The position numbers and the translations under genes were made by a program. The notes beneath the pieces were generated by a model. It worked only from the letters and a program-made list of their open reading frames with translations. It was not told the DNA's origin and made no database searches. A stretch of 64,000 nucleotides of DNA from Plumapathes pennacea (lineage: Eukaryota > Cnidaria > Anthozoa > Antipatharia > Myriopathidae): NCBI GenBank assembly GCA_964036295.1, contig OZ038464.1:10216001-10280000 (forward strand), in the 5' to 3' direction. Below, piece by piece: positions 18,544 through 61,991 of the stretch (positions are counted from its first letter, which is position 1; each line of letters opens with the position of its first letter).

Positions 18544-18792
18544 AGTGTTGAAAAGTCCTTGAACATGGCTGCTGGTGCTTGAAAAGTGCTTGAATATGGA
18601 TGAAGCCTTGAAAAGGTCTTCAATTTTGACAGAAGGCCTTAGAAAGTACTTGAATTCTAAAAGGATACAATCATATTATAGCTTAGCTTGTGCTCACTCC
18701 TCATAAAAGCTCTTGTTGTGCAGAATTTCCTCAATCCAGAGATTATGATTCTGACAACTTGCCTAACCTGACCCCCTTCTTATCCCCCTTAA

Positions 18793-19004
18793 AGGATAAC
18801 TCCGACCTAAAATTGACCTATTTTTAAACAATTCTTAAATGTACGGAGAATTGATTTTCGAACTGCTTTTGTGCATATTGCCCTTTGCGAATTAAAAAAA
18901 ATTATGAAAGATCGCTATTTTGCTACTTTTGGCCTGAAACACCATGGCGCAGAAAACGTGTGTCAGTGGTACTTTTGTGAGCGTGTGACGTACTGTACGG
19001 GGAG
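18793..19004 (+). repeat. Kolobok left terminal inverted repeat
   Basis: About 210 bp. The first ~65 bp match the right arm with one or two changes, then similarity continues with more substitutions through GGCGCAGAA and GTGTGACGTA to GGGGAGC. The P2X7-like start codon at 19012 lies just inside the arm, so the TIR probably supplies its promoter and leader. Confidence 0.88.
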
Positions 19005-19011
19005 CGTGAAG

Positions 19012-19714: not shown

Positions 19715-19918
19715 GAATTTCACTCCCTGCTTACTAATTTAGCTTTCAAAAACTGTTTTAAAAACTGTTTATGATTGTTACTGTATATATTCAACCTAGT
19801 AAGCAACAGTATGCTGTTGTTTTGTTGTGCAATATCATTTTACTGATTTTGACTGATTGCCTACAATATAACAAATAGATTATGGACTAAAAATAACTTT
19901 CAATAAATTTCTCTAAAC

Positions 19919-22417: not shown

Positions 22418-22572
22418 TGTAACGTTTCCAGAGGGTACGGAGTAGAACAAACTCAAAGGTCACTATAGAACACTTTAATATACTCGGGCACGTACTGTAA
22501 CATAATCACTTACTAACTAGACGCAACACAAGAAGCAGTGTTCGTACACCATCTTGCTTTGTTCAAATCTGC

Positions 22573-22777
22573 AGCTCCCCATACACTACGTCACACATTC
22601 ACAAAAGTACCGCTGACACGCATATTCTGCGCCACGGTATTCGAGGCCAAATAGCAATCTTTTATATATATTTTTTAATTCGCGAAGCGCAATATGCACA
22701 AAAGCAGTTCGAAAGTCAATTCTCTGTACATTTAAGAATTGTTTAAAAATAGGTCAATTTTAGGTCGGAGTTATCCT
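22573..22777 (-). repeat. Kolobok right terminal inverted repeat
   Basis: Inverted partner of 18793-19004. The outermost 65 bp are nearly identical; the inner part diverges. It lies upstream of the THAP exon and so probably carries the transposase promoter. Confidence 0.88.
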
Positions 22778-22781
22778 TTAA

Positions 22782-23265
22782 TGAATGTTGGTGCCTCGTT
22801 TTGAAACCTTGAGATCATGTGGGGTGGCCCACCTTGTGCATTTTCTGTAGGGTCTAAAGCTATTGTTTTGTTGTGTTAATGGGAAGTGTGTCTTTAACGG
22901 CAAATGGCTGATCCAACCCCCTACCCCCTTTCCATCGTCTTAGTGAATGTTGGTGCCTCGTTTTGAAACCTTGAGATCATGTGGGGTGGCCCACCTTGTG
23001 CATTTTCTGTAGGGTCTAAAGCTATTGTTTTGTTGTGTTAATGGGAAGTGTGTCTTTAACGGCAAATGGCTGATCCAACCCCCTACCCCCTTTCCATCGT
23101 CTTAGTGAATGTTGGTGCCTCGTTTTGAAACCTTGAGATCATGTGGGGTGGCCCACCTTGTGCATTTTCTGTAGGGTCTCTAACTGTTGTTTTGTTGTGG
23201 TAATGGGGAAGTGTGTATTTAACAGCAAATGGCTGATCCAAGTGAAGCTTAAGTGGGTCAGAGAG
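22782..23265 (+). repeat. 162-bp tandem repeat, three copies
   Basis: GAATGTTGGTGCCTCGTTTT recurs at 22783, 22945 and 23107, exactly 162 bp apart. The copies are nearly identical, and the third runs on into the BED-finger ORF. Each contains the ATGGGAAGTGTGT start of that ORF. The junction sequence is TTAG in copies 2 and 3 but TTAA at the Kolobok edge of copy 1. Confidence 0.9.
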
Positions 23266-25180: not shown

Positions 25181-26577
25181 TCCTTAAGTTCTCTCTCACT
25201 GCTGCACGTAGAGGTAGTATATTTCCAGAGCGTCAGTTCTGTGCTAGAACCTATTTTTTAGGATGTGGTGAACAACAGAGTGAGACTGGTAATAACATTA
25301 CCAAAACCAAACAGTTCAATCTCATTCACAGTTCGGAACATTCTACCACCCAGTGCAGGATAAATCTGACACACTCAGAGTTCTTCAAGTTCAACCTCCA
25401 GTTCAGCAGCTTTATCTGCAGCAATGGTTTTTAGTAAGTGCAGACCCTGCACTGGTCGGCACAGAAGTCCCTTAGTAGGTGTCCTCACACACTGGGTCAG
25501 ACACGACCCCTTTACGTATCATTAAATTCTGTCAATTTTTTTTCGTGCGAATGAGATAAAAGGAATGGGCACTAGTATCGAGATGACCGGAAGTCTAAAA
25601 CGGAAAGAACATCTCTTTGGGGGTGGTGTTCGGCACAAAATGTTTCCCGCCTTTTCAAGATGGCAGCCTCATTTTATAGCAGATAAGTCAGGCTTTCTTT
25701 TACTTTTTTCCGCTTTAAAATTGGACTATTATTTCTGGAGATATGATGGCTAACAATGAATGGTTAAAACGGGATTTCTCTCTGTCAACTACAAATATTA
25801 AGGTATTTTTACCTCTCGTTTGTTTGTTTTCTTATTGAGTAAAATGAAATTCGAAAATGATACGATTGTAAAGTGTTTTTTCTTCTTTAAGTATATCATA
25901 TCCTTATGCCATTGTGACAAAAAATGTATTTTTTAAACCAAGCCTTTCAACGACTACTCTCGTGCCAGTCGTATCGCAAAAACGGAAGTGATTCCCGATC
26001 GGTGACTATGCGACAGAAAAAGCTTGGAAGAGAACAACTGATCGAAGAAAAGCTGCGAGTCGATCAAAACACCAAACGTTTGTGAGGCAAGTTAAATTCT
26101 AGCAAAGAAAAGGTACATTTCCATGTTTTAAAAATAGCTTACTTTGCTAGATACCTACAAGCTAGAATTTGTCGTATTATTTGTTTGGCTTACTTTACTG
26201 CACTGCACTGCCCGGCACTTTTTTTCCCTATTTGCACTGCACTTCCGCATTACTGCACTTATATAGATCTAGTTTTTCATCCATGTAACGAGGAAGCCTA
26301 GATATCATAAGCGCCCCGGCTTCTTTCTGGGCTTTCTCACCACAAAATTTCTCAGCATGTAAAGCTATGCTTTGTAAGATAAATGATATGTGTGGTGAAT
26401 CAAATAAAAATGAAATTTTGTACTACTTTTGAGGGTAAACTTGTTGTTAATTCTAGCCTGTTTACTTTTGCGTTGCCTGTACTACCTGAATGTTTTCAAT
26501 GTCTTGAAGTAAATTTAGATTCCAATGAAATATATATAGAAAGCTTTTTTTACGATTGTCTTTATAATTTAATTTAA
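25181..26577. other. No recognised gene; presumed 5' flank of the Harbinger element
   Basis: A short ORF at 26007 starts MRQKKLGREQLIEEKLR and could be an upstream exon of the transposase, but no donor gives the right phase, so I do not call it. The left terminus of the Harbinger element should lie here, but nothing matching the right-end GGGTGCGTTCC motif was found. Confidence 0.35.
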
Positions 26578-26599
26578 GGAACAACGCCTAGTTGATGAC

Positions 26600-27835
26600 T
26601 TGGAGAACATTGAATCAATTTCAAATCAAGCTCAACCAAGAAGACTAAACATTGAAAGCAAAGTACAGCCGGATAACAGTCATCGTCTTCAACTTGGAAC
26701 TGCTCAGCAGGCAAGGTGTAAGCGCAAAACCTTGGCAGCTGAAAGCAAGATCCACTCAAGCACTGCCTCCAAGTCTGATAATAAGGCAGTTATGGATGGC
26801 CTTTGGACAACCATTGTCACAGATGTAAGTGAAAAACAGCTACAAAGGTACATTTCAACATCTAAAGTGTGCATGGAAAAGGGCTGTACCTGGAGAGGTA
26901 CGGTGGATTTTTTGCATGGTTTGCTTGGTGTCTTTCCAGAAATTCCACAGCATCAGACACACGGCGGGAGACCACCTGTTCTGCTGCAAAAGCAGATTCT
27001 GCTTTCATTATGGGTTCTGGGCAATCCCGAATGCCTTCGGTCCGTAGCTGATCGATTCGACGTTACGAGGTCGAGTGCATATTGCATCTACCGAAGAATT
27101 TGCAAGGCCATCGCACTTCATTTGTCCGGACAATTGATCAAATTTCCATGTGGCCAACGCGCACGTGAAGTAAGGGATAAATTTGAAGAAATGAGGGGGT
27201 TTCCTGGCGTCATGGGAGGCATTGATGGCTGCCAAATACCCGTTAAAGGTCCCAGAGAAAACTCGGAGCAGTACATCAACCGCAAAGGCTTCCACTCTGT
27301 CCAACTACAAGTCGTTTGTGATGGAAGCATGCAGTTTACGGATGTCTTTTGCGGGTACCCGGGATCTGTTCGCGATGCAAGAGTCTTTAGAAATTCTCCA
27401 CTGTATCACGATATAGAAGCGGACCCAAGGCAGTTATTTCCTGGAAATACACACTTAGTCGGAGATGCTGCATATCCCCTAAAGTCCTGGATTCTGACTC
27501 CCTTTAAGGACAATGGACGTCTAACAAGAAGCCAAAAAAGGTACAATTTCGTGCACAGCTCAACAAGAATGGTCGTGGAGAGGTCACTGGCACTTCTGAA
27601 GGGGAGGTTCCGAAAGCTGAAAACTGAAATGGACGTTAGTAGAATAGAGGACGTACCTGAGATTGTAGTTGCCTCGTGTGTGCTGCACAATATCTTTCTC
27701 CTGAGCGAAGATGATATCGGTGACTTTTTCGATAATGACTGTAATGATGGCCATGATGATCAAAATAATGATATTTTTCTAGCAGAGGTGGAGGGGGCAG
27801 ATAAAAGAAATGAAATAGTGAGATACCTAGCTTAA
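26600..27835 (+). CDS. PIF/Harbinger transposase (HARBI1-like, DDE_Tnp_4)
   Basis: An intact 411-residue ORF. The N-terminal ~100 residues are basic. A helix-turn-helix region (residues ~125-175) includes LLSLWVLGNPECLRSVADRF and TRSSAYCIYRRI. The catalytic core starts at GGIDGCQIPVKGP (first Asp, ~residue 210), then YPGSVRDARVFRNS (~255), GDAAYPLKSWI (second Asp, ~290) and ERSLALLKGRFRKL (Glu, ~330). The protein ends with an acidic tail. Length and motif order fit the family, which acts with a Myb/SANT partner. That partner is encoded convergently at 28410-29189. The M at 26600 may not be the true start, as an acceptor-like TTTAATTTAAG lies just upstream. This is the best-preserved transposase in the window. 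Confidence 0.92.
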   Translation: MENIESISNQAQPRRLNIESKVQPDNSHRLQLGTAQQARCKRKTLAAESKIHSSTASKSDNKAVMDGLWTTIVTDVSEKQLQRYISTSKVCMEKGCTWRGTVDFLHGLLGVFPEIPQHQTHGGRPPVLLQKQILLSLWVLGNPECLRSVADRFDVTRSSAYCIYRRICKAIALHLSGQLIKFPCGQRAREVRDKFEEMRGFPGVMGGIDGCQIPVKGPRENSEQYINRKGFHSVQLQVVCDGSMQFTDVFCGYPGSVRDARVFRNSPLYHDIEADPRQLFPGNTHLVGDAAYPLKSWILTPFKDNGRLTRSQKRYNFVHSSTRMVVERSLALLKGRFRKLKTEMDVSRIEDVPEIVVASCVLHNIFLLSEDDIGDFFDNDCNDGHDDQNNDIFLAEVEGADKRNEIVRYLA

Positions 27836-28409
27836 ACTGGGGAAGGAATCCATGGGGATTTTTGAGTAGCAAAATTCCCCTTCACCTTCACTTTCACTTT
27901 CTCTCTTGAAGTGTGAATGCTTATGCAAAATGTTGTACAACCACATAAACCTACCACAACCCTTTCCTGGCAAGCAACAATTCATACTTGATATCTGTAA
28001 CATGTTATCTTAGCACAAAACTGTTGATTCTATTGTTAGCCCAAAACCAGAATACATTAGCTCACATGCTCATGTGCAACAGCAACTGGGTTTGTACATT
28101 GTCAACCTTGTGAAATAATTCATGTATTTCTGCATTAAAGACATACTTCTTTGGATAATTCCCACTTGTACTGTATTGTTGTGTTTGTAAATAGAGTATA
28201 GATGGCATAAGTGCAGTGAAAACCATTTATTAGTACTTTTTAACCAACGATGTTACATAACAGTATGACATGGATGCAATCATTCAGAAAATCATTTAAA
28301 TATATGTATAAACAAACAGGAACAGGAATGTAAACAGTCAACAAATGGGAAATGAAATATCTTAAATGTCTCAAAAATACAATGAACTTCTTGAAAACCA
28401 AAAACAATA
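27836..28409. other. Spacer between convergent Harbinger genes
   Basis: AT-rich interval with probable 3' untranslated sequence of both genes; no other feature. Confidence 0.5.
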
Positions 28410-29189
28410 TTATTCCTTATCCACCTTATTCATGGATTTTTCAAATACCTGCAAAAATCTACCCATTACATTCATTTTGTCACTGTACATTTGCTCCAGT
28501 TTCAACATTTTCTCTTTTTCACTTTCTTCCCTGGACTTTGTAAATTCTTTGAATAATATCACCAGTTCACCTGTTTCTCTCTGGCGAGGTGTTTGAACCT
28601 TTTTCTTCTTCCTGGGAACTTCTTTATTCTGGGGAATGTCATCAGCATCTGTTGTTGATTCACTTGTTTCACAATAATTGGTGTCTCACATTGGTTGATT
28701 GCGAGTGTGCCCTCGGCGATTACTGCAAAGAGCGGCTTGATTGATTGTAGCATCCTTGTGAAACAAGTCGTGTAACTCATCGTAATAAGCACAGACTTTG
28801 CGTTCATTACCTGAAGTGTTGTTATGATCTACATTGTTCACATAGGCACGCTTTAAGTTTTTGAACTTTGTTTTGCAGTCCTTGCCGTTGTTATCTGGAA
28901 ATCCATTCTGCTGCATATCGTTACTAATCATCTCCCATATGTCCTTATTTCTTGTCCTGGGATTTCTGAATTCTTGCCTTCTCTCCTTATAGCTTTCTAG
29001 CAGAGCAAGGACCTCAGCTCTTGACCAGTTTTTTCTTCTATTTGAACTAGCGGTGGAACTTGGTTCATCTGCAGATAAACAGCTCGGACCCTGTGTTGAT
29101 GTGGAGGGCGCAGACTCTGGTGCAAACGGCTGCCACGAGTCATCACTTATAACACTGTAGTCAGTTGTATATAGCTGGTTGTTCCACAT
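28410..29189 (-). pseudogene. Harbinger Myb/SANT-like DNA-binding protein with one stop
   Basis: A single frame of 260 codons from ATG at 29189 to TAA at 28410, interrupted only by a TGA at 28686-28688. After an acidic Ser-rich N-terminus (residues 1-55) a trihelix/SANT-like domain reads NWSRAEVLALLESYKERR, NKDIWEMISNDMQQNG, DCKTKFKNLKRAY and CAYYDELHDLF (about 55-145). The part beyond the stop is a basic then coiled-coil-like tail (RKKKKVQTP, EKEKMLKLEQMYSDKM). In Harbinger elements this second protein brings the transposase to the nucleus and the TIRs. The single stop suggests recent loss, or a truncated but functional protein ending after the DNA-binding domain. Confidence 0.85.
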
Positions 29190-29475
29190 ACCTGCAAATA
29201 TTAAAACCGAAGATCGATAGTTGTCTTACAAAACGAGCGAGTCGAGATATATCAGAAAAAAGACCAATTGTGCAGTTGAAGAGTGCCTATTGACTCGTAC
29301 TAATTTCTGATTTCTGACGGGTAATTCATGCAAGCAAATATTAAAGCAAGTTGTGATGAACGAACAGAAGAAATCTCATACTAACATCGCAAGATGGCAT
29401 CAGTAAACTGTTACCAAAGAGTCTGCTCCACAAAAAATACCGCTGGTCAGTATGACGTTTTGCTAATCCGTGCCC

Positions 29476-33465: not shown

Positions 33466-34325
33466 GAAAAATATCAAAAGCGTTTAGTATGAGAAACAAA
33501 GTGTCTCAAAGTCACAGCCTTTTAAGCCACATTCCTCTGCTGTTTCAAGGTGTCCAATTGATTTTAAACAGATTATTATAAAAACAAATTCTATCTGAAA
33601 AAATTCAAAAGCTTCTTATTTTAGTACCCGGTGAAGCATCAAGAAACAATATGTTTCACAGAGTCACAGCCTTTCAGCCAAGTTCCTCTGCTGCTTCAAG
33701 GCGTCCAATTGATTAAACATACAATTGTTATGGAAACAAATTTATCTGAAAAACATCAAACGCTTTTTAGTGCCTAATGAAGCATCAAGAATCAATATAA
33801 TGTTTCGCAGAGTTACAGCCTTTCAGCCAAGTTCCTCTGCTGCTTCAAGGTGTCCAATTGATTGGACATACAACTGTTATGGAAACATTTATCTGAAAAA
33901 CAAACGCTTTTCAGTACCTAATGAAGCATCAAGAAACAAAAATATGTTTCACAGTCACGGCCTTTCAGCCAAGTTCCTCTGCTGCTTCAAGGCGTCCAAT
34001 TGATTAAACATACAATTGTTATGAAAACAAATTCTATCTGAAAAATATCAAACGCTTTTTAGTACCCAATGAAGCATCAAGAAACCAAAATTATGTTTCA
34101 CAGAGTCACAGCCTTTTAGGCAAGTTCCTCTGCTGCTTTAAGGTGTCCAATTGATTGGACATACAACTGTTATGGAAACAAATTTATCCGAAAAACATCA
34201 AATGCTTTTTAGTACCTAATGAAGTATCAAGAAACAAAAATATGTTTCACAGACTCACAGCCTTTCAGCCAAGTTCCTCTGTTGCTTCAAGGTGTCCAAT
34301 TGATTTACACAGTCACTTGTTATGA
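33466..34325 (+). repeat. ~150-bp tandem satellite, about six copies
   Basis: CCTCTGCTG recurs near 33534, 33685, 33834, 33977, 34127 and 34277 (spacing about 143-151). Each unit also carries GTGTCCAATTGATT, CATACAATTGTTATGGAAAC and TTCACAGAGTCACAGCC. Copies differ by substitutions and small indels, so the array is not recent. ORFs across it are by-products. Confidence 0.9.
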
Positions 34326-35359
34326 AACCCTTGCTTGGTTAATAAACTACAAAGGTACAGTATTTAATGCAAGAGACTGGTTTTACAAAATATTTAAAGA
34401 AAGGTGACAGAGTATGATATATGTAGGAAAGACACTGCAAGATCAGGAGCAAAGTTTGAATGGCATGACTGAGAGTACATCTGCAATGTTGGAACAAAAT
34501 TTTGAGGGTTGGGGCCAATATGATGAAAATTCAGTTAGAATGTGTTGAGCAAGCGAAACAGAAGAAAACGGCTCAAATATAAGTACTGCGTAAAGTCAAA
34601 GAATCTTGCTCATCCAGGTCTGTCCAACATTGGAAGCTTTAGCACATTTTGTCAAGCTGTGAGATTGAATTCCACAGGGCGCCGGCACCTCTTTGCTGCT
34701 GTCTCTGCGATTATGGCTCGTTTTATTCACCAGCGTAAGGCGAAATTGTGCCAGTTGCAAGAAGTAAATCCTGCTCCACGGCAGACAGCAGCTCCTTCGA
34801 TCGATCAGTTCACAAAAATGGCGCGAACATTGCCATCTCGTTCCCACGCTTCGACAAACAAACTCATTGCGCGATAGAACGGATCGGAACTTTATTAGTG
34901 AAAAATCGTCCATTTCCAGTTTTCTCTTTCTTGATGAGTTTGCCAAAGTCCCAAAAGATGTCTCCACAAGTAGTCTCTGAATTTCTTTTTGTGACAAGCT
35001 GAACAGGCCGATCAGGCTTTGATGTCTATTTCCATAAAACCAAAAAGAAATGCACAAAGTTTTCGCTGCGAGTGACACTACGAGATTTAATGGCATCGAG
35101 TTTGACCAAAAACGCAGCTGAACAGCATTTTACACTACTTTCACGGAGAGATCAAAGGGAGCAACAACACTTCAATCTCTGTGCGTGGTAAATAACTAAC
35201 TGTGCCCTTCTCTAGTTTCATTCTACTTGTCAACACTCCATCCGAAGGTGTGTGGGTTGATGGAAACTGTAATTTAATTGCGCGCATTTCCCATGCTAAC
35301 ACCGGAAATTTGACCAAACTCCTGCAGAATGCGTTAAAGTCACATGAAGTTCGTCATGA

Positions 35360-45798: not shown

Positions 45799-47870
45799 CT
45801 ACACTGACGATATTACGAAGTCCTTGTGCCACACGGGCTTCCGTTGCAGGCGGCTGGACCTGCGTGGGCCAGTGTTGTCTGGGTAGGGTGTGTCGCTAGT
45901 GCTCGGCCCATGGCTGGCGGAGAAAGGTCTGGCCTGCTCAGTGGTCGGTGGCTCGTTGGCTGGTGTACTGGGTTTGACACGCTCGTCCATGGTGGGTGTT
46001 GGTAAGACCTCCACAGCATCAGGTAGTTCGGGTACTGGCGGTTCCTTGGTTTTCAGGATGTGTCTGCGGTTGCGCCTATACTCCGTGTCGCCAACCTTCA
46101 CCATGTAGCTCCTGTTGTCGAGACTCTGGGTGCAGGTTCCAGGATGCCACGTGTCCTGGCCAGGCGGTTTCATTCGCACCGTTTCTCCGTTGAGGATAGG
46201 CTGCAAAGGCTTGGCCTTCTTGTTATAATAGTACTGCTGTCGCTGCTTGGCTCCGGTCAGTGCCCGAGCATCTCCATTGATGTCAAAACGGGGCTTTAAA
46301 AGGGTGCCTGCCATCGGTAGCAGTGTCTTACACCGGCGTCCCATGAGCCGCTGTGCTGGGCTTGTTCCTATTCCCTCGGTTGGGGTGTTGCGCCAGTCCA
46401 GTAGCGCCAAGAACTCGGACTGGCCAGAGGCTTTGCACTTGCGGAAGAGATTCTTTACGGTCTTAACAGCATTCTCGGCCTTGCCGTTTGACTGTGGGTA
46501 CCGAGGCGATGACGTCACGTGATCAAGGCCCCAGGTTCGCGCAAAAACTGAGAATTCCGCTGAGGAAAACTGGGGGCCATTGTCTGTTACTAGCACATCG
46601 GGAATCCCAAATCTTGCGAAAATTCCTTTGAGCTCCTTTATGACTGCCCTTGAGGTGAAAGATGTCAGACGCGCGACCTCTATGAAGTTGCTGAAATAGT
46701 CGGATACGACCAGCAAGGTACGACCGTCATGGTCGCACAGATCAGCGGCTACTTTTGACCAGGGTCTTGCGACAAACTCGTGTTGCTGGATGGGTTCCTG
46801 GCTCTGGGCACTGCGATGAGCCAAACAGACGTCACATTTGGCGATGAATTCTTTCAATTCAGTTTGCATCCTTGGCCAGTAGAGGCTTTCACGTGCTCGC
46901 CGGATGCAGGCCTCGATACCCATGTGAGAGGAATGGGTGGCTGTCATCAGTTCCTTGCGAAGTGCGACTGGAACAACCAGTTGGTGCCCTTTGAACACCA
47001 GTTCCTCTTGCACTGTGAGCTCATCACGTATATCAAAGTAAGGATACAGGCATTGTGGAACATCTGATCTGCTGTCAGGCCATCCCCGACGTATCACTGA
47101 CTGCAACTCTCGGAGGGTGGGGTCGTCAGTTGATGCATGCTTGATTTGCTGCCATCGAGCTTCACTTACGGGAAGGTACTCCTCGTGGTTGATCTCCTCC
47201 AGCTGGTGCATAAATTCCGACGCATTCACTTCGGGCAGAAAGGCCCTGCTTAGGGTGTCTGCGAGGAACATGTCCCGGCCCTTCTTGTACTTTAGCTCGA
47301 GATTGAACTTTTGGAGACGTAGCAGCATTCGCTGGAGACGCTGTGGTGCCGAGTTGAGCGGCTTACGTACGATGGCCTCCAAGGGCTTGTGATCCGTTTC
47401 GACGGTGATCCCATCTCTCCCGTATATGTATGTGTCGAACCTCTCACAAGCAAAAACTATGGCTAGGAGTTCCTTCTCTATTTGCGCGTAGCGTGTCTCG
47501 GCAGATGTGAGAGCCCTTGAGGCATATGCTACAGGCTGCCCATTCTGCAACAGCGCAGCTCCTAGCCCATATTGAGATGCGTCACACTGGAGTGTGACTT
47601 CATCATCCAGGTTGTAGTAGCGGAGAACAGGCGTGCGGGTAACTGCCTCCTTTAACTGGTTTAATGCTGTAACTTGCGCATTTTCCCAGCACCACTCGAC
47701 ATCCTCCTGTGTCAGCTCTCTTAAGGGTTTTGTCAGGTCCGACAGGTTGGGAAGAAATTTGCTCAGGTACTGAGCCAGGCCCAGTAGACGCTGAACTCCT
47801 GCTTTGTCTGTTGGGTCTGGCATCTCACGTATGGCCTTTACTTTGGCTGGGTCGACTCGCAGGCCCTCGC
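45799..47870 (-). pseudogene. Gypsy pol 3' part: RNase H and integrase
   Basis: A 674-codon open frame plus upstream continuation to about 47870. RNase H begins with LQCDASQYGLGAALLQ (first acidic residue) and includes YAQIEKELLAIVFACERF and TDHKPLEAIV; integrase has the zinc-binding H-x3-H ... C-x2-C (HSSHMGIEAC, AKCDVCLAHRS), catalytic Asp near AADLCDHDG, Asp in VTDNGPQFSS and Glu in NGKAENAVKTVK; a GPY/F-like stretch follows (SYMVKVGDTEYRRNRRHI). All integrase catalytic residues appear intact. The protein lacks a chromodomain. It is in a different frame from the upstream RT. Confidence 0.9.
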
Positions 47871-49722
47871 CGTCTGCCTTAGTACGAGCTTGTCAGCATT
47901 GAGCTTGAGCCCGCGCTCTTGACACCGCTGAAGGAAGGCAATCAAATTCTTGTCGTGGTCTTTCGTTGCTAGCTCGTAGGTTTCCCCGTAGCCAACAACG
48001 ACAAAGTCGTCAGCCACAACTTCTACGTAAGGCACCCCTTCAACTAGCTCATGCATTTTCCGCTGGAAGACTTCTGGGGCTGACCGGATCCCAAAAGGCA
48101 TGCGCTTCCAGCAATACCGGCCGAACGGGGTGTTGAAGGTCGTTAGGAAGGATGAGTCCTCGTCCAGTTTGACGTGCCAGAAGCCATTTCTCACGTCAAG
48201 TTTCGTGAATACTTTGGCTCCATGCAACCGCGTGGCCACATCCTCTATCGTGGGAAGTGGGTAGTGCTCCCTCTGAATGGCTTTGTTTAGGTCCTTGGGG
48301 TCCAGGCACAATCTCAGCTTTCCATTTTTCTTTGGGACGACAACCAAAGAGCTGACCCATGGCGTGGGCGTGGTTACGGTGGCAATGATGTCTTTTCCTA
48401 CCATGTCGTCCAGCTCCGATTTCAGGGGCTTTCTGAGTGCAACAGGCACCTTGCGTGGTGCGTGCTGTACGGGATTGATGGTCTGGTCAATCTTTATGCG
48501 GTACTCGCCATCCAGCTCACCAACGTCTTCTGAGAACACTTGGGGATACCGGCGCAGAAGGCTCTCTTTTGACATGCCAGCTTTAAAAGTGTCATCCTTG
48601 ACTGCATAAACGGTGGCGTTGCCTACCTTTGGCTTGTTAATGGCATCATTATCTGTGTACGTGATAATGTTCATGCCGATGCATGCCTTTCGCCCTAGGA
48701 TCGGGCGGATTTCGTCATTATCTACCAGCTTGCAGTCTAGCAGACACTTGAAACTGTCCCGCCACACTCTGATGATGACCTGTCCAACAACTGGAAGTTT
48801 TGAACCCCCATAGGCTGAGATGGCTGAGTTCACTGGTTTGACGTGTCGTAGGTCGGGATCTTTAGCTGCCTTCTTATACAGATGGACTGGGATGACATTA
48901 CACTGGGCGCCCGTGTCTGCTTGGAATCGTAGACAGTTTCCGGACTCCAGTCGAAGAGTCACAAATTGTGAATCATCTAGTGCGACAGCAGCGATGTCAT
49001 TGACGGTGTACATTTCCTTGGAGTCTGCTGCGGAATCGAATTCCTCGTCAACCACTCTTACACTTCGGTGTGTGTTTGTTTCGCTCCGTTTGTTGCTGCG
49101 GCACATGGAGGCGAAGTGGTTCATTTTCCCACACTCGTTGCATGTTTTGCCGCGGGCTATGCAGTTGTCTGCTCCGTGAAACCGACCCCAGTTCCCGCAG
49201 GCTTTCTTAGCGTCGTTGGCTTTATCTCTTTGGCCACGTGGGAATTTCCGGTTGAAATTTATGGCGCTCACTGTATCTCCTTGACTGACCTCTTTCATTT
49301 GGGCGGCCGTGCTCTCGGATGCACGGCAAATCTCGTCTGTTTTCTGAAGTGTAAGGTTTGCCTCTCTCAGCAGCCTTTCCCGAACCTTCGCGTCGCGGAT
49401 GCCAAACACCAAACGATCGCGTAATATTTCCTCGGGTGTGATCGATGCGAATTCACCACCTTCGGCGAGTTTCCTCAGAGCCGTCTTGTACTGGTCATAC
49501 GTCTCGCCGGCTTCTTGAGCGCGTTTGTTGAAGCGATACCGCTCGAACGGAACGTTTTTTCGAGGTTGGCAATACTCCTCAAATTTCTTTAGCACCGCGC
49601 CAATTTTGTCGTTGTCTGTCTCGTCGAATGTGGAGTATACGTCTCTTGCGTCTTCCCCAATGATCGTTAGTAGGGTAGCTACTTGCACTGGTTCAGTTTT
49701 CTCGTTACATTCTTCTCTCGTG
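47838..49722 (-). pseudogene. Gypsy gag-protease-RT 5' part
   Basis: A 616-codon frame. Gag begins mid-domain (VATLLTIIGEDARDVYS). Two zinc knuckles follow; the second, CNECGKMNHFASMC, is canonical and the first has Trp in place of its second Cys (CGNWGRFHGADNC). Protease has QADTGAQCNVIP. RT runs from VSSLVVVPKKNGKLRLC through TKLDVRNGFWH (first Asp) to VEVVADDFVVVGY (ADD box). The frame ends soon after NADKLVLRQT, where roughly 30 bases appear lost, shifting the frame into nonsense. 5' sequence of gag is absent. Confidence 0.88.
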
Positions 49723-52672
49723 GGATGTTATCATGGTGGCAATGGTAGCATTCATTATTGTCTGATCTACAACCATCTCCACAATCAGGGCAGCAGCTCT
49801 GTGGAGGAACTGCAACTTCTTAAGTTTGCTTTGAGTGTGGAGATCTTCAGGGATGGGGCATTGTGATGGATTGCCATTCTTGTCTTGTAACCTAAGCACT
49901 TTAAAGGAAGCTGCAAGCACACGAGCTGTCACTTCCAGAATCATGAAGTCCCTATTTGCCCGACAAGCAGAGTGTGGATCCTCTCGCATATTGCGACGGT
50001 TTATGACATTTTGGTCAGCAAACAAGGTACAATGGTCATCTGCTGAACTTGCAGAGTAGAAGCGTCTAAAAATATACAATAACACTGGAATATGTACTAA
50101 ACAATCGAGTATTTCACCCCTCCCATCCAAGGTGAATGAGCCATGCAATTTTTAGTGAGATATGACCTGACTCCCTGGAATTAATTTAGGGAAAGTAGAC
50201 TAGAATATATGATTCAGTTGTTGCATGCAGTTGATGGTGTAAAACTGACCTATCCGTGGAAGTATTTGAAGGTTTTTTGACTCCTTGGTCATTTACAGGA
50301 TATTTTAATAATTTTACATCAACCTTGTAAGCTTTTTAAACACTTGGTTCTTTAGTTTTACTTTTTGAGCTAGACACTAACTATACCTCAAGAAACTTGA
50401 GTCCTGTGTGCCAATCACCCATCTGGAGCATAAACCCTTCTAGTCGGTCCTCAGCTGTGTAGCCATTAGACAAAGAGTGAATGGAGTTAACAGCTCTTTC
50501 AACGGACAGTTGGTCTCCCACACACAGTTTGTTAACAAATTGTTTTTGGCCATTGGCACTAATTGTGAAGGGGAGGTATGACTGAAACTGTTTCAAGATC
50601 CCAATCATCTCTTCAGTGACATTCTCGTACTTGAAGAGTATTCCCAAAGGGACCTGGAATAGTTAATTCCCACAACAATTAAATACTAAAATCTTATTGG
50701 ACAGTCACAAGTCATGCACTTTATTTTTGCTGTATTGCTAGTGAGAACTTACAGTCTTACTATATAATGAACTGATTAGTCCCTTTTTCACTCCTGGAGA
50801 TCATCTTCATTTATTTTTTCAATCTCTCACCAGAGATATACTAATCATTCAATATGGAGAACCTTGCTGAGATAAAAGCTTTATAGAACTATCAATATAT
50901 TCTTACCACATTTGTACATCACTCATATTTTCATAAATAATTGGGAGATTATTGAACTCTGGAGTGAAGGGTTAATTAAAACAATATTATTGTAAACATA
51001 ATATATGTGGACCTAGTGATGGATTTAATACACAGAAACAATGGTATTCCAGGATATTGTTATGTACTCACTTTCTGCATATGCTGCATGTATATTAGTA
51101 GTATTATTAAGTGAAGTTGAGTATAATTATGTAAATGAATATTAAACAATGTGAAACTACATTTATTTGGTGACTATATGTGATCTCATTTTGCACATTT
51201 AGGTTGACTGGCAAGAATTGCACTAAAGCCTGAAAATCCCCTTCCAGTCCAGCTGGACATTGCTACTCGGAAACAGCTAATTAAATGTTAATTATGGGTC
51301 CATTTCAAACGTCAAACTTTTCATGTGCCAAATTCAGTCTTAGCTCAAAACAATGGCTGTTGCTAATTTGCATTGAGTTTGGCAAGCAGTGGTGCAACAT
51401 TTGAAACGGACCTTGTGTGCAAAAAAAGATGACATACTTAACTGATTTAGATTTCCTGGTCATCTCCTTGGAATACTTGTGCGGAACATGATAAATACAC
51501 ACATCCTTCAGAAAAGCAAAGGACTCTAGGTTCTCCACAAGCATTTTTGCAACAAGGACAATGTAGTTGTACCTCTGACACTTCTGATCTTGCATACTTG
51601 GAAGGAAATGGATGTTGGAGACAGAGAGCAAATCTTTTGGAGCACTGTTTGGTTTTGTATCGGACACTCGATTAACTGATGCTTTGTGGTTAACCCAGTG
51701 GTAATCAATGTTCTGCAAATTCTTAGACATTTGTTTCCTTTCAAGTTTTCCATCAATGTTGTCAAATTGAATGGCAAAACCAGTGGGTAAAATTGACTGT
51801 GCCTTACACAAATCGCCTCTTGCTTTGTTCAGATCTTGTGTGCATTCGTCTGTACACAAATGCCCTTCTGATTGGCAGATTCCTTGTAGATTGGTGACTG
51901 CCTCTTTTGCTTTTTCCACCCATTGTTGCTCTTCTGAGATATTTTTCTGCAGGGTATGCACTTCCTGGTCATGATTCTCCCCAAGTAAGTCAAACTTTGC
52001 ACGGATGCACACTAGAACAAGTGACTTTCAGCTTTGATAGTCTATCCATTGTTGCCTGGAAAAATATAAAACAGTATTATTTTACTAATCAGACTATTAG
52101 GAGTCAGTCAAGATTGATGTTGATAGTACGGTGTACTTAAATATTCTGATATAAAACTATCATGTTGATAACTCTGAACCTAAAAATAATGAGCGTACAT
52201 GTAGTATTTAAGTTACTCGATGAACATCAAGGCAACATATTTACTGACCAATTCTGTATCTTGATTACTAAATTGAATATGGTCAACAAATCGAGTTTCT
52301 GTTCTTGAGACAGAAATGTGGACACATGGACTGATTCAGTATTAACTGCATGAAATTTACTAATCTCTTGATATTAGCCACACCGAGAAAGTGATACTTT
52401 TTCAGAGAAGAATGAAATATATATATAATAATAATAATGACAACAACAATAATAATACGAAAAGGGTTGAAATATTTTCGATCCCTTTACCTCAGCACTC
52501 ACAGATGAAGTAAGAAAACAGAAAATGCCAGGCTTACCTCCAGAGATCTACTCTTAATTAGCACACCCAGGAGAGTTGCACAGCTGTTCATATCAGTATT
52601 CCTCTGCTTTAAGAGCACTGAGCCAGCAATTGCAACACTCGGTAGCCATCCTGGGCTACTTTCGGACGACTT
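49723..52672 (-). pseudogene. DUF6589 gene, upstream exons
   Basis: Four exon regions on minus: 52672-52538 (PGWLPSVAIAGSVLLKQRN, ending GTAAGCC); about 52060-51446 (charged coiled-coil-like, then FDNIDGKLERKQMSKNLQNI, YHWVNHKASVNRVS, QRYNYIVLVAKMLVENL, HVPHKYSKEM) with a frame change near 52015; 50647-50383 (GILFKYENVTEEMIGIL, CVGDQLSVERAVNSI, AEDRLEGFMLQMGDWHTG); and about 50120-49723 (FRRFYSASSADDHCTLFADQ, INRRNMREDPH). The conserved GDQLxxER, DRLEG and DWH motifs identify DUF6589. The function of this family is not established. The last exon is cut by the Gypsy element. The 50648-51445 and 52070-52537 gaps are intronic; the latter includes an AAT-rich microsatellite near 52420. Confidence 0.75.
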
Positions 52673-55281: not shown

Positions 55282-58112
55282 TTATTCTTCAGGTGGTCCA
55301 GTTCTTTGACTTGCTCTGTGCATCCCAAGAGGCCATACAAAGGCGAGTATGAGAGCACTGTTCAGGTGGATCTGGAATGTGGCCAACAACTTTGAACTCT
55401 GGGTCTGTAACAGCTGTGCCTGGAGAAGTGCATGTGTCTGGAACTGTTTCCTGAGGAATGTGGATCTTGGACTGCGATTGGATCTGGAAGAATGTGCGAG
55501 TCTGTATCTGGGCCTGGCATGGTCACAGCAATTATCTGCCTCTTCACATGGTTCTTCCTCATCATATTCAAGCTCTTGGTGATTATGCTCAGCTAGTGGG
55601 ATGTTGTCATCATCACTTTCATACTTATCCTGCTCTGGTGGCAACAGGAAACCAGTTGTAGCCTTGGTGACTATCAGGTTCTCCAGTTTGGTCAGGCAGG
55701 TACAGAAAGTGCCCTGGGAGGTTGATGTTTTGCTCAAGACACAAGGAGCAGGACTCCTCAAGGTGAGACTCCTTCTTGCTTGCAGTGCTTGAACGGAAGT
55801 GGTGAAGTGCTGGACCCTCTGGTATGGTTGGAGGTTTGGACTTGAAATATGACATTTTCACTTTCATTTGAGTTACGAAATATGACATTTTCACCATCAT
55901 AGTCCCACCACACACCAGGGCCTAGAACTAGGAAGTCACTTATCTTCTCCAGATGGGCTTGCCATTCTCTTGGATGCTGCTGAATAATGTTGGCAGAAAT
56001 AAGGGTGTCTGGAAACTCGATGAGGCTCTCAGACAGCTTGCTTATCTTTCTTCTCTGCTCTGCACTCCGTGATCCCTTACCTTGTTTTCGCAAATTGTCC
56101 TCAGCCTGCAGCCTGCTCAAAGGGTTGCCAATAATGTGACCATTTTCTGCATTCATTGCTGTGCCTGACATGATCCTAAGCTGTAGTGGTGCATGACTGA
56201 TTAGGCCACGGAAATGCTTGCCATACAGTTTCCGGCGTGTCATTGCAGAGCATGGCATGGCATGGCAGAAACTCAAGTTGTGGTATCTGAGGATGAGGCG
56301 TGGGGATCTCTTGCTTTCATCTGCATACAGGATTTCGTACATTTCATCAAGTGTGTTCATTATCTGCTGCACCTTGAGGGGAGCTCTTTATCTCAACTGG
56401 AAAGATGCAACAATTATTGAACACTTTTGGGCGAATGCTCTTTTCTTGTCCTTGTCCTCCACTGTCAGCTTTACAGCTTCACGCAGGAGTGATGCTGCTC
56501 CTTCTGGAACATGGTTAGGAAGCTCCTGCAACAGATTCCCAATATGTCTAGCCAAGTTATGCATTGGCGCACATGGTAGAACCTCATAATGTTCCAAGTT
56601 GAGGCTTTGAAGAGGAGGATCCGGGTTTAGGAAGAGCAGGGCTGGTACTCAGACCTTTCCTCTCAGATGACTTGTGAGTGCCCACTGCAGGTCAGGTTTG
56701 AGCTCACCTTGTGCCACTAATCCCCTTGCTGCTATTTCTCTTTCCAGGTCAGACTTGTTTTTGAAGGGCTTTGGGTGCATTGCCAGGGAGAGTCGCCTTC
56801 CAATAGGGCTACCAAGAACTGACTGCTGCCTTTCAAGGTATGTAACTACCTTGCATCTTGAAATATGGTCCAGTTCATAGACCCAGTTAGCATGTACAGC
56901 ACAATAAAAGTGCCCTCCCTTGTGCTGTCTACCTCCAGTTCAACTGCAGGGCTATCACCCTTGCAGAAACGCAACTTGTCATGAATGTGGACACCAGAGG
57001 GAAGTTCTAGTGGGTGTCTCAGATTCCTGAGACAATCACAACGGGTTTCTGTGTATGCTAACTGGCCAATATCTGCATCTCTACATTTGTAAGAAAAAAA
57101 TTCATGCATGTACGTATGAATGAATGTATGCATATATGTATGCATATGTATGTAACATATCATTATTGTCTGTTTTATTCACATTCTTGCTCCCCCATAT
57201 ACCGATATGGACTTGTAAATCAATAAAATTAGTGATATTAGTCGAAGCTCCCATAAGTGGACAAGTGGGAAGTATAAAGGTGTCTGGAACTGGAACTGAT
57301 GTGTAAATAAATAGCTTGACGGAGTTAAAGTTTAAATGGAATTTTGTAAAATCATTATAGTATAAGACGTAGAGCCCTGTCCATTTATGGGAGTTTCTGC
57401 CCAGAGAGATTTGACTTTATTATGCATAAACTTGCAGAGGTTGGAGTTAAATTTCACAAATGGTGCAGCTATACATTACAAAGCATATTTTTTAAAGATT
57501 AAAGCAATGTACAAAATAATTTTGTACAATATTGTATCTGAGGTTACTTTATCAGATTACTGGAGTATTATCAACACATCCCAAATGTGTATGAGGAGTT
57601 CTCCATTGCACTTGTGCACACTTACCTTGCAATAATGTAGACTTGTGGTTGTTCAACAGCTGCTTGTATGTCAACCTCCTGTTTCTTTTTATTCCTCTGA
57701 TGTGAGATGGAATGCAGGGTCATACAAAGTTGTGACCATGAACAGTAAATAGCCATGGTTGGCGACAGTTGAATGGTCATGCCAAATAATCAGATGCCTT
57801 GTTCTTTCTAGTATCTTCAACTTCCTCATGGATGCAAACCCCTCACTGTCATAAAATTCATTTAATGCTTGGAGTCGTGCAGCAACCTACAGCCTTGACA
57901 TTTCAGCATAATACTCATCTGGTTGATTCCGGATTAATTCTGATTGGTTGTGGAGCATTTTGGTTCTGATTTCTTCTAAAGGCCTTTTCCTTCCTTCAGC
58001 TATCACTTCAATTTGTTTGATGTTTTTGTCTTTGTCCAAAATCAGTTTCTTGAATTTTTTTGGGACAATGACCTCCCCAATAGAGAATTCACCAGAAGCA
58101 ATCTTGTCTTTG
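55282..58112 (-). pseudogene. Family C gene, C-terminal part
   Basis: On minus, from the insertion edge: KIASGEFSIGEVIVPKKFKK (58095), an in-frame stop near 57885, then RTRHLIIWHDHSTVANHGYL (57800) and LYDPAFHLTSEE; a second exon (about 57090-56850) with RFCKGDSPAVELEVD; then PIGRRLSLAMHPKPFKNK, a stop near 56650, VPALLFLNPDPPLQSLN, CAPMHNLARHIGNLLQELPN, a stop at 56388, and LYADESKRSPRLILRYHNLS, RKLYGKHFRGLISHAPLQLR, GHIIGNPLSRLQAE, HPREWQAHLEKISDFLVLG. A frame change near 55830 leads to an acidic tail. I know similar proteins as a large uncharacterised cnidarian family; no enzymatic motif is certain. A 33-bp tandem duplication occurs at 55844-55894. Confidence 0.6.
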
Positions 58113-58365
58113 ATGGAACTCCAACACTGTCTTATGTTACTTTACTCTATTATGTGTGGTACTTATCTCATTATATGTGGTACATAAATCATTATCTGTG
58201 GTACATAAAACATTATATGTGGTGCCTTCCTCATTATACTTGGTGCCTTCTTCGTTATATGCGGTGCATACTTTATTATATGAGGTGCTGAATCCTCAGG
58301 GACCTGGGTAAGAGCTGAATATGTCCTAGAATACCATGTGTGCACACTTTCTCCCGCCAATTTGT
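58113..58365 (+). repeat. Left minisatellite-containing TIR
   Basis: Outer part identical in order to the right arm (CTTATGTTACTTTACTCTAT), then about seven 21-bp units of CATTATATGTGGTACATAAA type, then GAGGTGCTGAATCCTCAGGG to CTCCCGCCAATTTGT. Confidence 0.9.
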
Positions 58366-58750
58366 CAGAAATTTTCAGTATGACACAAACTATGCATGCA
58401 GTCTTGATAAAAGTTCAAGACACATGTGGTGCCCCCGCATTCTTCATTCCAAAGTGTGTTCTCGTGAATTTACTCAAAGAGGGTTTACAATCAAGGAGAT
58501 GTCCACAGTACAACTGCAGAATCCAGTGGGGATTGAGCTTGAGAGTGCCACTGTAGAAATGTATGGTGTGGAGGGAGTCTTGGATCAAGATGATGATGAT
58601 GGCGACAACCGACCATCAGATATCCTCAGTGAGCAGTGTTTGCAATATTTAAATCACCACATTACACCAGGTTGGAATTCTACAAATTATGGAATAGATG
58701 TTTATTTGCAAGTCCTAAGCTGCATGAACAATTTTAGCCAGAACATTTGA
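58340..58750 (+). CDS. Unassigned ORF inside the SAM element
   Basis: 136 codons beginning inside the left TIR. The second half is acidic with a protein-like composition (GIELESATVEMYGVEGVLDQ, then a run of Asp, LNHHITPGWNSTNYG). No domain is recognised. It would be divergent from nothing and convergent with the SAM gene. May be a real second gene, an exon, or chance. Confidence 0.25.
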   Translation: MHTFSRQFVRNFQYDTNYACSLDKSSRHMWCPRILHSKVCSREFTQRGFTIKEMSTVQLQNPVGIELESATVEMYGVEGVLDQDDDDGDNRPSDILSEQCLQYLNHHITPGWNSTNYGIDVYLQVLSCMNNFSQNI

Positions 58751-59320
58751 CTTATTTCTTGAGAAAGTGACGTAAATACATGTTTGTTTACACAGCAATC
58801 AATAAAATGTCTTTTCACGTGGCGACTTTTTGGCTCAGGCTACTAAGATTTTTTGGCAGTTGTCAGGATTCTATAAGATTTGCTCGTTATCTCTTGCTCT
58901 CGCATTTGCTGGTTCGAATCGCAAAGCAGACCTCCAAAAAATCCTAATGTATTTTTTTCCACTTTTTTGTTGTTTGTTTCGAGTGTTTTAATTCAAGATG
59001 ATGCAGATAAAATAAAGTCACATAAAATGTTCTTCTATAAACCCATTAATTCTATTATCAGAGAAGCAACATAGAAACAATAGAATCAATACACCTTGCA
59101 ACAGCTATGTTAATTTGACTAAAACTATGAGTCTGTGAGTCCAGGAATACATGTACAATGTAAGTGGATTAATAAACACCAAAATATGCATTACAGAATG
59201 CAAGGTCATATAACTGGAATAGCTTGTCTGTTGGCTCCAGGTTACCACCCAGAGGGGCTATAGGGTCCATGTTTCTCACCAGAGGGACTGTAGGCTCCAT
59301 GTCTCCCATCATAGAAGCTC

Positions 59321-60373
59321 TTAAGGCTGCTGCTGAGTGCCAACTGACATGTTTTTCCGCAAAGGGGGCTGCTGGTCATGATTGACACGAGGCTCTTGGG
59401 TTATGGTTACCATGTCCCCATGTGAGGAAGACTGATGGGTTGCAGTAGAACTTGAATTTCCTTGATTAGAAACAGATTGTGGGACTGCACTGCTCGTACC
59501 CAGGCTTCCATTGACAGAGGGTGGAAGCCCTGTTTCATTGTTATCACCGTCATCAAAAATAGTTTCAGTACACTCCAATGCATGTTTCCTAAGGTTATGG
59601 ACGAGAATTTCCTTCAGGCACCATCGGCAATTTTCTTTCAGGAGAGACCCACTACTTTTTGGTGCCAAAGACCTGGTACTCAGATTCCTCTGAATAGGCC
59701 TCAGATAAATTTTGGCTTGCCCACCCACAGTTGACTTGAGATCTCTTGCAGACCATGAACTTTGAATGACAGCCAAGTCCCTACAATTTGACAAACACTG
59801 CAACATCTCAAAACCACCACAAGTATGGAGTTGGGGGAAGCCAAATGTGTCACCGTTTTTGTCCTTGGTATCACTCGTTAATTTGGCGAAAACATCTTCC
59901 TCTTTGTCTTCCACCAAGAGCTTGATCTTCTTGGACCCAAGTCCTGCCAAGTGTAAAATCTGCTTTTCCACTGAGGACGGGGTTTTGGTGACATGGCGAG
60001 ATGAAAGACACACAAACTGAACCGTTCATGTCCGTTGCGGACACGAGTTCTTTCGTTTTCTTCCTCTACCTCTTCCAGTACTGGTGCCTCTGTGCGAGCT
60101 TCCGCTCAGTTCAAAGAGAAGACTTCTCTCTTGCCTTACTGTTGATGCCAAACCAGAGAGATCACGGTTCTCGGCGTTCTCACCTTGGGCTTGGTTCTTT
60201 TCTGCAAATTTACCACACAAATTTCTGAGGCGTATGCGGTCTCCCACCGTAGACACGCCAAGTCCTGCCAAGGCGGTTTCGGACATTGACAAAACCACTT
60301 GCGGGTCAACCCTTTCTTCCTTAAACCTTTCTATAAGAGTGCCCAAGTTTAACTGATTTAAAATAAATTCCAT
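59321..60373 (-). pseudogene. SAM-domain, C2HC-finger protein (G2E3-like N-terminus), one stop
   Basis: One frame from ATG at 60373 to the stop at 59321, broken by a single TGA near 60025. Residues 1-60 form a SAM domain (MEFILNQLNLGTLIERFKEE, ALAGLGVSTVGDRIRLRNLC). A basic linker (RGRGRKRKNSC) follows, then VQFVCLSSRHVTKTPSS, LAGLGSKKIKLLVEDKEEDV, FPQLHTCGGFEMLQCLSNCR, AKIYLRPIQRNL, and a C2HC finger (CRWCLKEILVHNLRKHALEC). The tail is Ser/Gln-rich and low complexity. The order after the SAM domain recalls G2/M-phase-specific E3 ligase-like proteins expanded in fish and corals, but the HECT ligase domain is absent. The start lies 18 bp inside the right TIR, which therefore probably acts as promoter. 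Cargo or captured host gene. Confidence 0.7.
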
Positions 60374-60391
60374 GATAGCATCGACTGCAAT

Positions 60392-60768
60392 ACAAAATGG
60401 CAGGAGAAAATGTGCACACATTGCATTCTGGGACATATTCAGCTCTTACCCAGGCCCCTGAGGACTCAGCACCTCATGATAACGAAGAAAGCACCGCATA
60501 TAATGAAATAGGCACCGCATATAATGAAATAGGCACCGCATATAATGAAATAGGCGCTGCATATAACGAAGTATGCACCGCATATAATGAGAAAGGCACG
60601 CATATAATGAATAAGGCACCGCATATAATGAATAAGGCACCGCATATAATGAATAAGGCACCGCATATAATGAAGAAGGCACCACAGATAACGATTTATG
60701 TACCACATGATTAGATAAGTACCACACATAATAGAGTAAAGTAACATAAGACAGTGTTGGCGTTCCAT
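60392..60768 (-). repeat. Right minisatellite-containing TIR
   Basis: About thirteen 21-bp units of GCACCGCATATAATGAAATAG type at roughly 60490-60710, bracketed by the same inner (CTCCTGCCATTTTGT on minus) and outer (ATGGAACGCCAACACTG on minus) unique parts as the left arm. It is about 120 bp longer than the left arm because of extra units. Confidence 0.92.
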
Positions 60769-61991
60769 AGTCTTTGACCCTTGACTTGATGCTGGCATTG
60801 ATTTCCTGAGTTGGGAGAGTTACCTTACCTGACAGAGAAATTAAGCATTGAATCTCTTAGTTATTATCACACTGCATACATGTATTAAATATATGATATA
60901 TAACTTCGGGAAAAAAAGTAAAAAAAAAGCATTCTGTTAATTGCATATGCTGGAAATGTTGCTAACATGCACCTGCTGCTCCTCAAAGCTTCTTTCTGCT
61001 TGCTTGTCGCTCTCCACCAAGTCTGTTCTCTGGTACCTGGAACCGTTGGACATCTATTCCTTCACTAATCAACCAGTCTTTGACAACTTGTCCTCCATTT
61101 TTTGCCACTGCACCTGTCTTGTTGTTCACTTGATACTTTTTAGCCAATGCTGACCAGTTGAGTTTTGTCACTGGGGTATCCTTCCACCTCCAGCTGCAGA
61201 TCTTCCAACCCTGATAATTTTTGTAGATTCCCACTGATTTGTTGGCTTTTTCTTTCCCTCTCTAACTTTCAGCAAGTACGCATCACGTCTTTTGCCTCTC
61301 TCCTGCTTTCAAAACTAGATGCCAACCTTTCTCTTTGCGTGCTTGCATATGATTGTCGATTGCCAAGGCATCTGAAAAGATTTTTTATTATTATCTTGTT
61401 CTGGGATACTTGAATGAATTACTGTAGACCAGGGATCATGCATGTGAATTTATTGTGTGTGCTCATCAGAGGTTGGAGGTTGGCAATACTGCTAAGCTGA
61501 CATGATAAACATTGAAGCATTGTGTTCAATGTTGTTTTTTGACCCCATGGTGTCTCTTGAAGTAGTGCTTCAAAGTCTCCACTTTCCCACAAAAGCACAT
61601 AAAGACAATCAGAGATCATTTAATTCTACCTGAGCACTGAGGTTTCCTTCCAGTTTTCTTTCACCTTTGCTTTTGCTTTCCTCAAGACTTCTCCACTGCA
61701 GATCTTCTTTCAACATTAGCCCCTGGCACTTTAGTTGGCCTCTCCAAGTGACACACCAGACCATTTCTGAAAAACTGGGTTCAGGGTTTTGTAGATTGAA
61801 TTAGCCCCATCCAGTGCCTCTTTGATTAGTACTGTTTTGTTTGCTCTTGCTTGTAGATTTGCATTTAACTCTCGAGCTACTAAAAATGGATTTTCTCTTG
61901 CTTTGTAACGGACATTCAGCTCAAGGGATTTTGGTGAACTGCTAAGATGATCTTGCTGTTTTGCCGTTGATATTGCAGATTTTGCTGGCAT
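60769..61991 (-). pseudogene. Family C gene, N-terminal part
   Basis: Exon-like frames on minus: MPAKSAISTAKQQDHLSS to VFQKWSGVSLGE (61991-61731); KRRDAYLLKVREGK then, after a frame change at an A-run near 61245, SVGIYKNYQGWKICSWRWKD, LAKKYQVNNKTGAVAKNGGQ, VVKDWLISEGIDV (61230-60983); and a short exon starting at 60828 after a TTTCTCTGTCAG acceptor, reading VTLPTQEINASIKSRVKD up to the insertion. It is continuous in frame with KIASGEF at 58112 once the SAM element is removed. The KNGGQVVKDWL region could be DNA-binding, but this is a guess. The gap 61260-61730 is mostly intronic. Confidence 0.6.

What the first reader, a model, noticed from the sequence alone, without database searches (positions are those of the whole stretch)
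58113..60768. Unclassified transposon with 21-bp minisatellites inside its TIRs and a SAM-domain gene as its main cargo
Seen: inverted arms with identical outer and inner unique parts but different numbers of 21-bp units (~7 vs ~13); a 7-of-8 match target duplication; and an interrupted family C reading frame that closes in phase when the element is removed. The interior is dominated by a SAM + C2HC-finger gene and has no recognisable transposase. TIR-embedded minisatellites could be subterminal transposase-binding sites that expand and contract. A SAM/G2E3-like protein carried by a TIR element would be an unusual gene-capture case.
Basis: partly seen in the sequence, partly recalled or inferred. 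Interest (0 to 1): 0.82.

Follow-up and report, generated by a model that had tools for sequence, protein, structure and literature searches.

The report
Foldback-type transposon carrying a SAM gene
This is a decayed piece of mobile DNA whose mirror-image ends contain a stuttered 21-letter repeat, a known style of transposon, and it carries a broken gene of uncertain origin close to one of those ends.

Summary
Window 58114-60767 is a 2,654-bp inverted-repeat element. Its arms hold 7 and 13 units of a 21-bp repeat between nearly identical outer (54 of 56) and inner (78 of 86) parts. The best target duplication is 10 bp with 9 matches, not 8 with 7; as good a fit arose at 97 of 100,000 random position pairs. 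Removing element and duplication closes a reading frame, but 5,531 of 20,000 random joins do as well. Inside is one long minus-strand frame with a SAM-like domain, a possible C2HC finger, no HECT match and an in-frame stop. Its ATG lies 18 bp inside the right arm. Best reading: a non-autonomous foldback-type transposon, probably Mutator-like, close in anatomy to nematode Tm1, in which unequal unit numbers are already published. Whether SAM genes recur between such arms could not be tested: no genome of this organism is held, and scans for close relatives in viral and prokaryotic contigs found none. The G2E3 label is not supported.

The parts
58104..58113 (.). left target-site duplication TTGTCTTTGA
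   Evidence: 9 of 10 matches with the right copy; inner 8 bases GTCTTTGA exact
60768..60777 (.). right target-site duplication TAGTCTTTGA
58114..60767 (.). whole element, 2,654 bp, ends TGGAAC...GTTCCA
58114..58365 (+). left arm: outer part, seven 21-bp units, inner part
58149..58295 (+). left array, 7 units of 21 bp
60392..60767 (-). right arm: outer part, 13 units, inner part
60462..60732 (-). right array, 13 units of 19-22 bp, with a 104-bp higher-order period (five units)
59321..60373 (-). SAM-gene frame, 350 codons plus terminal stop; one of the 350 is an in-frame TGA
   Evidence: 0 of 2000 dinucleotide shuffles had so few stops in the best of three frames (lowest 4, here 2 with the terminal stop)
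60227..60361 (-). SAM-like domain, residues 5-49
   Evidence: SAM_1 E 2.9e-4; Bicaudal-C SAM E 0.017
60026..60028 (-). in-frame stop codon within the SAM-gene frame
59570..59635 (-). possible C2HC finger (C-x2-C-x11-H-x3-C)
   Evidence: sequence, TRAFD1/XAF1 finger E 0.29, below cut-off
58367..58747 (+). 127-codon open frame facing inward from the left arm; no Pfam family
57890..58111 (-). left-flank part of the interrupted frame ('family C')
60778..60856 (-). right-flank part of the interrupted frame, joins in phase

Best explanation
The element is a non-autonomous, decayed foldback-type DNA transposon, most likely of the Mutator-like (MULE) class, moved in trans by a transposase encoded elsewhere. 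Shown: composite inverted arms with collinear but unequal 21-bp arrays, a flanking duplication of 8-10 bp, no recognised transposase in what was scanned, and a single long interior gene frame that now contains a stop codon. Inferred: the 21-bp units (two helical turns, so repeated sites would face the same side of the DNA) act as a ladder of transposase-binding sites; the unit number changes by unequal exchange or slippage, including duplication of a five-unit block in the right arm; and the right arm supplies the promoter of the SAM gene, whose ATG lies 18 bp inside the arm's inner edge.
For: Arms and units. Duplication: 97 of 100,000 random pairs as good. Unit order: L1 is most like R1, L2 like R2, L6 like R8, L7 like R13; L4 ties among R3-R7 and R12, L5 among R3-R6 and R12, and L3 is most like R2. 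So the arms share one ancestral array and then gained or lost units. The 104-bp period in the right arm equals five units. MULEs make 8-11 bp duplications and often have long arms (passages of PMC6446971). Tm1 has arms of 1-9 tandem units differing between the two ends, 9-bp duplications, members with non-transposase passenger sequence, and a Phantom-type MULE transposase in its autonomous member (PMC3169594, parts read). The interior frame is non-random: 0 of 2000 shuffles had as few stops.
Against: Only one copy was seen; blastn of the element against the window finds only itself and its own repeats, and no genome could be searched. No transposase was found, so the superfamily rests on duplication length and anatomy alone. 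The 10-bp duplication has a mismatch, and an exact 8-bp reading also fits if the ends are unequal, which would suit hAT or P elements. A 9-bp duplication, the length given for Tm1 and Rehavkus, is not among the fits with symmetric ends; by eye it fits only with one extra base at one end and one mismatch. Unit conservation shows no significant binding-site-like block. Frame closure is matched by 5,531 of 20,000 random joins.
Confidence: 0.62

Rival explanations
1. A foldback-type element of another class: P superfamily (Galileo-like) or hAT, with an 8-bp duplication and slightly unequal ends.
For: Exact 8-bp GTCTTTGA flanks the element if the right end carries two extra bases. Galileo shows that P elements can have long, internally repetitive arms with binding sites in the repeats (PMC3688188 abstract).
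Against: With symmetric ends the 10-bp reading scores best. The termini TGGAAC do not look like recalled hAT or Galileo ends (recalled, not tested).
Confidence: 0.25
2. The SAM gene is a resident gene of the transposon family, spread with it and expressed from the arm, rather than a chance passenger.
For: The frame's first ATG inside the arms lies 18 bp from the right arm's inner edge and the SAM match begins at residue 5, so nothing upstream seems cut off. The frame fills 1,053 of 2,654 bp. I recall, without any call, that SAM plus C2HC proteins with this middle region are multicopy in cnidarian and fish annotations.
Against: One copy, with a stop codon; no relative found in viral contigs or prokaryotic genomes, which are not where one would expect it. 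No paper held the terms sterile alpha motif, DNA transposon and terminal inverted repeat together.
Confidence: 0.4
3. A Pack-MULE-like capture: a fragment of a host SAM gene picked up between the arms.
For: MULEs acquire host gene pieces in plants (PMC6446971 passages), and an insertion called suggestive of a pack-MULE, about 15 kb, is reported in a sea anemone (PMC9842752 passages). No HECT or other recognised C-terminal domain follows, as in a truncated capture.
Against: The N-terminus looks complete and in place next to the arm, which fits a resident gene better than a random fragment. No parental host gene is available to compare.
Confidence: 0.4
4. A local inverted duplication around a host SAM gene, with minisatellite growth, not a transposon.
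For: Only one copy was seen.
Against: Sharp ends at both arms and a flanking duplication rare by chance.
Confidence: 0.05

Closest known systems
Tm1 Mutator/foldback elements of root-knot nematodes (PMC3169594: abstract, part 1 of 3 of Results, the section on TIR motifs, part 1 of 2 of Discussion)
   Same: Composite arms with an outer motif, a variable number of short tandem units and an inner conserved block; unequal unit number between the two ends; most members lack a transposase; passenger sequence between arms; MULE-length duplication
   Different: Unit most often 14 bp there, 21 bp here; 9-bp duplication there, 10 (or 8) here; Tm1 ends mostly carry asymmetric 7-bp motifs; a histone-hairpin passenger there, a SAM gene here
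Galileo (P superfamily) of Drosophila (PMC3688188: abstract)
   Same: Long arms with internal tandem repeats that hold transposase-binding sites
   Different: Its transposase class is P; none is present here to compare
Tetris of Drosophila virilis (PMC4079207: abstract and introduction)
   Same: Apparently non-autonomous, foldback structure, tandem repeats within arms
   Different: Units of about 220 bp
Rehavkus elements (PMC6446971: passages)
   Same: Related to MULEs, long arms, a minisatellite in the element
   Different: Minisatellite lies before the 3' arm, 9-bp duplication, PHD-finger transposase; these were not found here
Drosophila FB and sea-urchin TU elements (recalled only)
   Same: Arms built of short tandem units in varying number
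   Different: Not compared by sequence

Membership tests
Foldback-type (structural class) | Long inverted arms containing tandem subrepeats that vary in number | tested here: met
   7 against 13 units; only the two arms of one copy compared
Foldback-type (structural class) | Target-site duplication | tested here: met
   9 of 10, or 8 of 8 with two extra bases; 97 of 100,000 random pairs as good as the former
Mutator-like elements (MULE) | Duplication of 8-11 bp | tested here: met
   range from passages of PMC6446971
Mutator-like elements (MULE) | MULE-type transposase in the element or an autonomous relative | not testable with these tools
   none recognised in the interior pieces scanned; no genome held to look for a relative
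Tm1 | Motif C unit of about 14 bp and 9-bp duplication | tested here: not met
   21-bp unit of another sequence, and no 9-bp fit with symmetric ends, against the sections read; the 3-bp Motif B (GGA) does occur within TGGAAC but is too short to count
Rehavkus | PHD-finger transposase and minisatellite before the 3' arm | tested here: not met
   arrays lie inside both arms; no PHD match in the pieces scanned
G2E3 / HECT ubiquitin ligase | HECT domain | tested here: not met
   no HECT match in the two halves of the SAM frame or in 8 further interior pieces of the 21 listed
SAM-domain proteins | SAM domain | tested here: inconclusive
   SAM_1 E 2.9e-4, 21.6 bits against cut-off 23; PDB best E 0.017, a SAM domain; 36 of 43 fold matches name SAM domains but all have E of 1.3 or more, model pLDDT 62

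The most novel reading that the evidence does not exclude
A family of animal foldback MULEs has adopted a SAM plus zinc-finger gene as a standing component, expressed from a promoter inside the repeat-bearing arm. The spread of this gene family across the genome would then be driven by transposition, much as Ulp1-like genes ride on plant MULEs (recalled).
Probability: 0.27. Interest if true: 0.62.

Novelty: new member of a known kind. Interest (0 to 1): 0.36.

Why it matters
If SAM genes recur between such arms, a lineage-specific animal gene family would turn out to be transposon cargo, which would change how its expansion is read in genome papers. Even if not, it adds a foldback element with collinear, unequal arrays in one copy, a clean case for studying how such arrays grow by block duplication. 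As a single decayed copy of a known structural type it is otherwise ordinary.

Tried and rejected
Other copies in the window: blastn found only the element itself and its own repeats. Of the other inverted pairs I looked at the ends of two (1570-2098 and 18789-22781): both have TTAA next to their ends and unrelated end sequences, so neither is the autonomous partner; the remaining pairs were not examined. Close relatives in viral contigs (6 pattern matches, none confirmed; no exact match) and prokaryotic genomes (no exact match; 116 pattern matches, none confirmed): none. Phage, plasmid, E. coli and metagenome collections were not searched. RNA families in 58000-60900: one hit far below its gathering score. 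tRNA genes in the window: none by ARAGORN. A coding role for the outward frame that runs from each inner arm through the array was rejected: of 8 codon differences between the arms over 27 codons, 6 change the amino acid, counting the start codon; such frames are expected since 21 is divisible by 3. Binding-site core in the unit: not significant. Structure of the second half of the SAM protein: pLDDT 41, not used.

Literature for SAM or G2E3-type cargo in transposons: searches (9 papers; 18; 5; 1,899 held two of three terms, 20 listed; 28, 15 listed; 0; 470, 12 listed). No title or abstract start in those listings reports it; the listings are partial. Also looked at without use: PMC2872659 on coral MITEs (part 1 of 4), PMC6431247 (passages), PMC13359780 (passages).

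Full report
What is there. The window stretch 58114-60767 is bounded by inverted arms. Read inward, each arm has an outer part, a tandem array of 21-bp units, and an inner part. The left arm holds 7 units. The right holds 13, of 19-22 bp. The first 56 bases of the arms agree at 54 positions and the inner 86 at 78, so they are close but not identical as the finding states.

Target site. With symmetric ends shifted by up to four bases and a duplication of 4 to 13 bases, the best fit is 10 bases with one mismatch, next to ends TGGAAC...GTTCCA. The 7-of-8 version and a 6-of-6 version score lower. Fits as good as the best occurred at 97 of 100,000 random position pairs. If the two ends need not be symmetric, the exact 8-base word GTCTTTGA flanks the element, with two extra bases at the right end; that word occurs three times on the plus strand of the window.

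Interrupted frame. Element plus one duplication copy is 2,664 bases, a multiple of three, and the joined minus-strand frame is open over 101 codons. A control weakens this: 5,531 of 20,000 random joins in the window gave a frame at least as long with at least 15 codons on each side. I recall that both sides resemble one multicopy cnidarian protein, but no call shows it. Two left-flank pieces have no Pfam match, nor has the nearest long open piece to the right; the short right-flank part itself was not scanned. The frame has no other copy in the window.

Arrays. Matching units of the two arms by identity, L1 pairs best with R1, L2 with R2, L6 with R8 and L7 with R13; L4 ties among R3-R7 and R12, L5 among R3-R6 and R12, and L3 is most like R2. 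So the arrays are collinear and differ by gains or losses in between. The right array shows a 104-bp period, the length of five consecutive units one of which has 20 bp, pointing to block duplication. Three consecutive right units are identical (R4-R6), and two others (R10-R11). Twenty-one bases is two helical turns, which would put repeated protein sites on one face; this is inference. A test for a conserved 14-base block among 14 distinct gapless units was not significant (19,356 of 100,000 permutations as good; three units with indels and three duplicate copies were left out of the 20).

Interior. The minus-strand frame 60373-59321 has 350 codons before its terminal stop, one of them an in-frame TGA at 60026-60028. 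None of 2,000 dinucleotide shuffles had as few stops in the best of three frames, so it is a former gene. Its start matches SAM_1 at E 2.9e-4, slightly below the curated cut-off, and a Bicaudal-C SAM domain in the PDB at E 0.017. A single-sequence model is of modest confidence (mean pLDDT 62). Of its 43 fold matches 36 name SAM domains, but the best E is 1.3. The second half has a C-x2-C-x11-H-x3-C pattern with only a sub-threshold match (E 0.29), one insignificant PDB match (E 0.28) and an unusable model. No HECT, PHD or transposase match was found in the two halves or in 8 further interior pieces of the 21 listed. The ATG is 18 bases inside the inner edge of the right arm, and the SAM match starts at residue 5, so the arm would have to supply the promoter if the gene was expressed.

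How it most likely works. A transposase made elsewhere binds repeated sites in both arms, cuts out the element and inserts it with a staggered cut of about ten bases. Galileo gives a precedent for binding sites in arm repeats (abstract). Tm1 gives a precedent for a MULE transposase with such arms (sections read). The number of units can drift because arrays recombine. The copy here has a nonsense codon, diverged arms and a mismatched duplication, so it is probably dead. All of this paragraph is inference from anatomy.

Comparison. Tm1 is the closest in anatomy, but its unit, end motifs and duplication differ, so this is not a Tm1 member. Rehavkus has a minisatellite before its 3' arm (passages). 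The structural class foldback is met; MULE membership is likely but lacks its key test, a transposase. An insertion called suggestive of a pack-MULE is already reported in a sea anemone (passages). The G2E3 label fails on the HECT domain.

Limits. No genome of the organism is held. That the host is a cnidarian is recall from protein resemblance, not a result.

Noticed in passing
18789-22781: Element with about 226-bp inverted arms, 86% alike, beginning AGGATAACTCC next to TTAA at both ends, with minus-strand frames between 19919 and 21372; looks Kolobok-like (name recalled). A 162-bp tandem array (22778-23241) starts at its right end.
   Followed up: partly
1570-2098: Small inverted-repeat element, arms about 112 bp and 87.5% alike, also with TTAA at the ends.
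   Followed up: partly
26573-29225: DDE_Tnp_4 transposase frame and a convergent Myb/SANT-like frame, the usual pair of a Harbinger element (name recalled).
   Followed up: partly
45799-49727: Retrotransposon frames with reverse transcriptase, RNase H and integrase matches; Gypsy-like (name recalled).
   Followed up: no
33510-34328: 149-bp tandem repeat, 5.5 copies.
   Followed up: no
58830-58960: Interior stretch with a 13-bp inverted repeat pair and a GGTTCGAATC word like a recalled tRNA B box; ARAGORN and Rfam found no tRNA there.
   Followed up: partly
60422-60433: Right inner arm holds TCCCAGAATGCA on the minus strand, like a recalled ZNF143-type promoter motif; degenerate in the left arm.
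   Followed up: no
58163-58360 and 60397-60714: Outward open frames through both arrays from similar starts; 6 of 8 codon differences between the arms over 27 codons change the amino acid, so probably not coding.
   Followed up: yes
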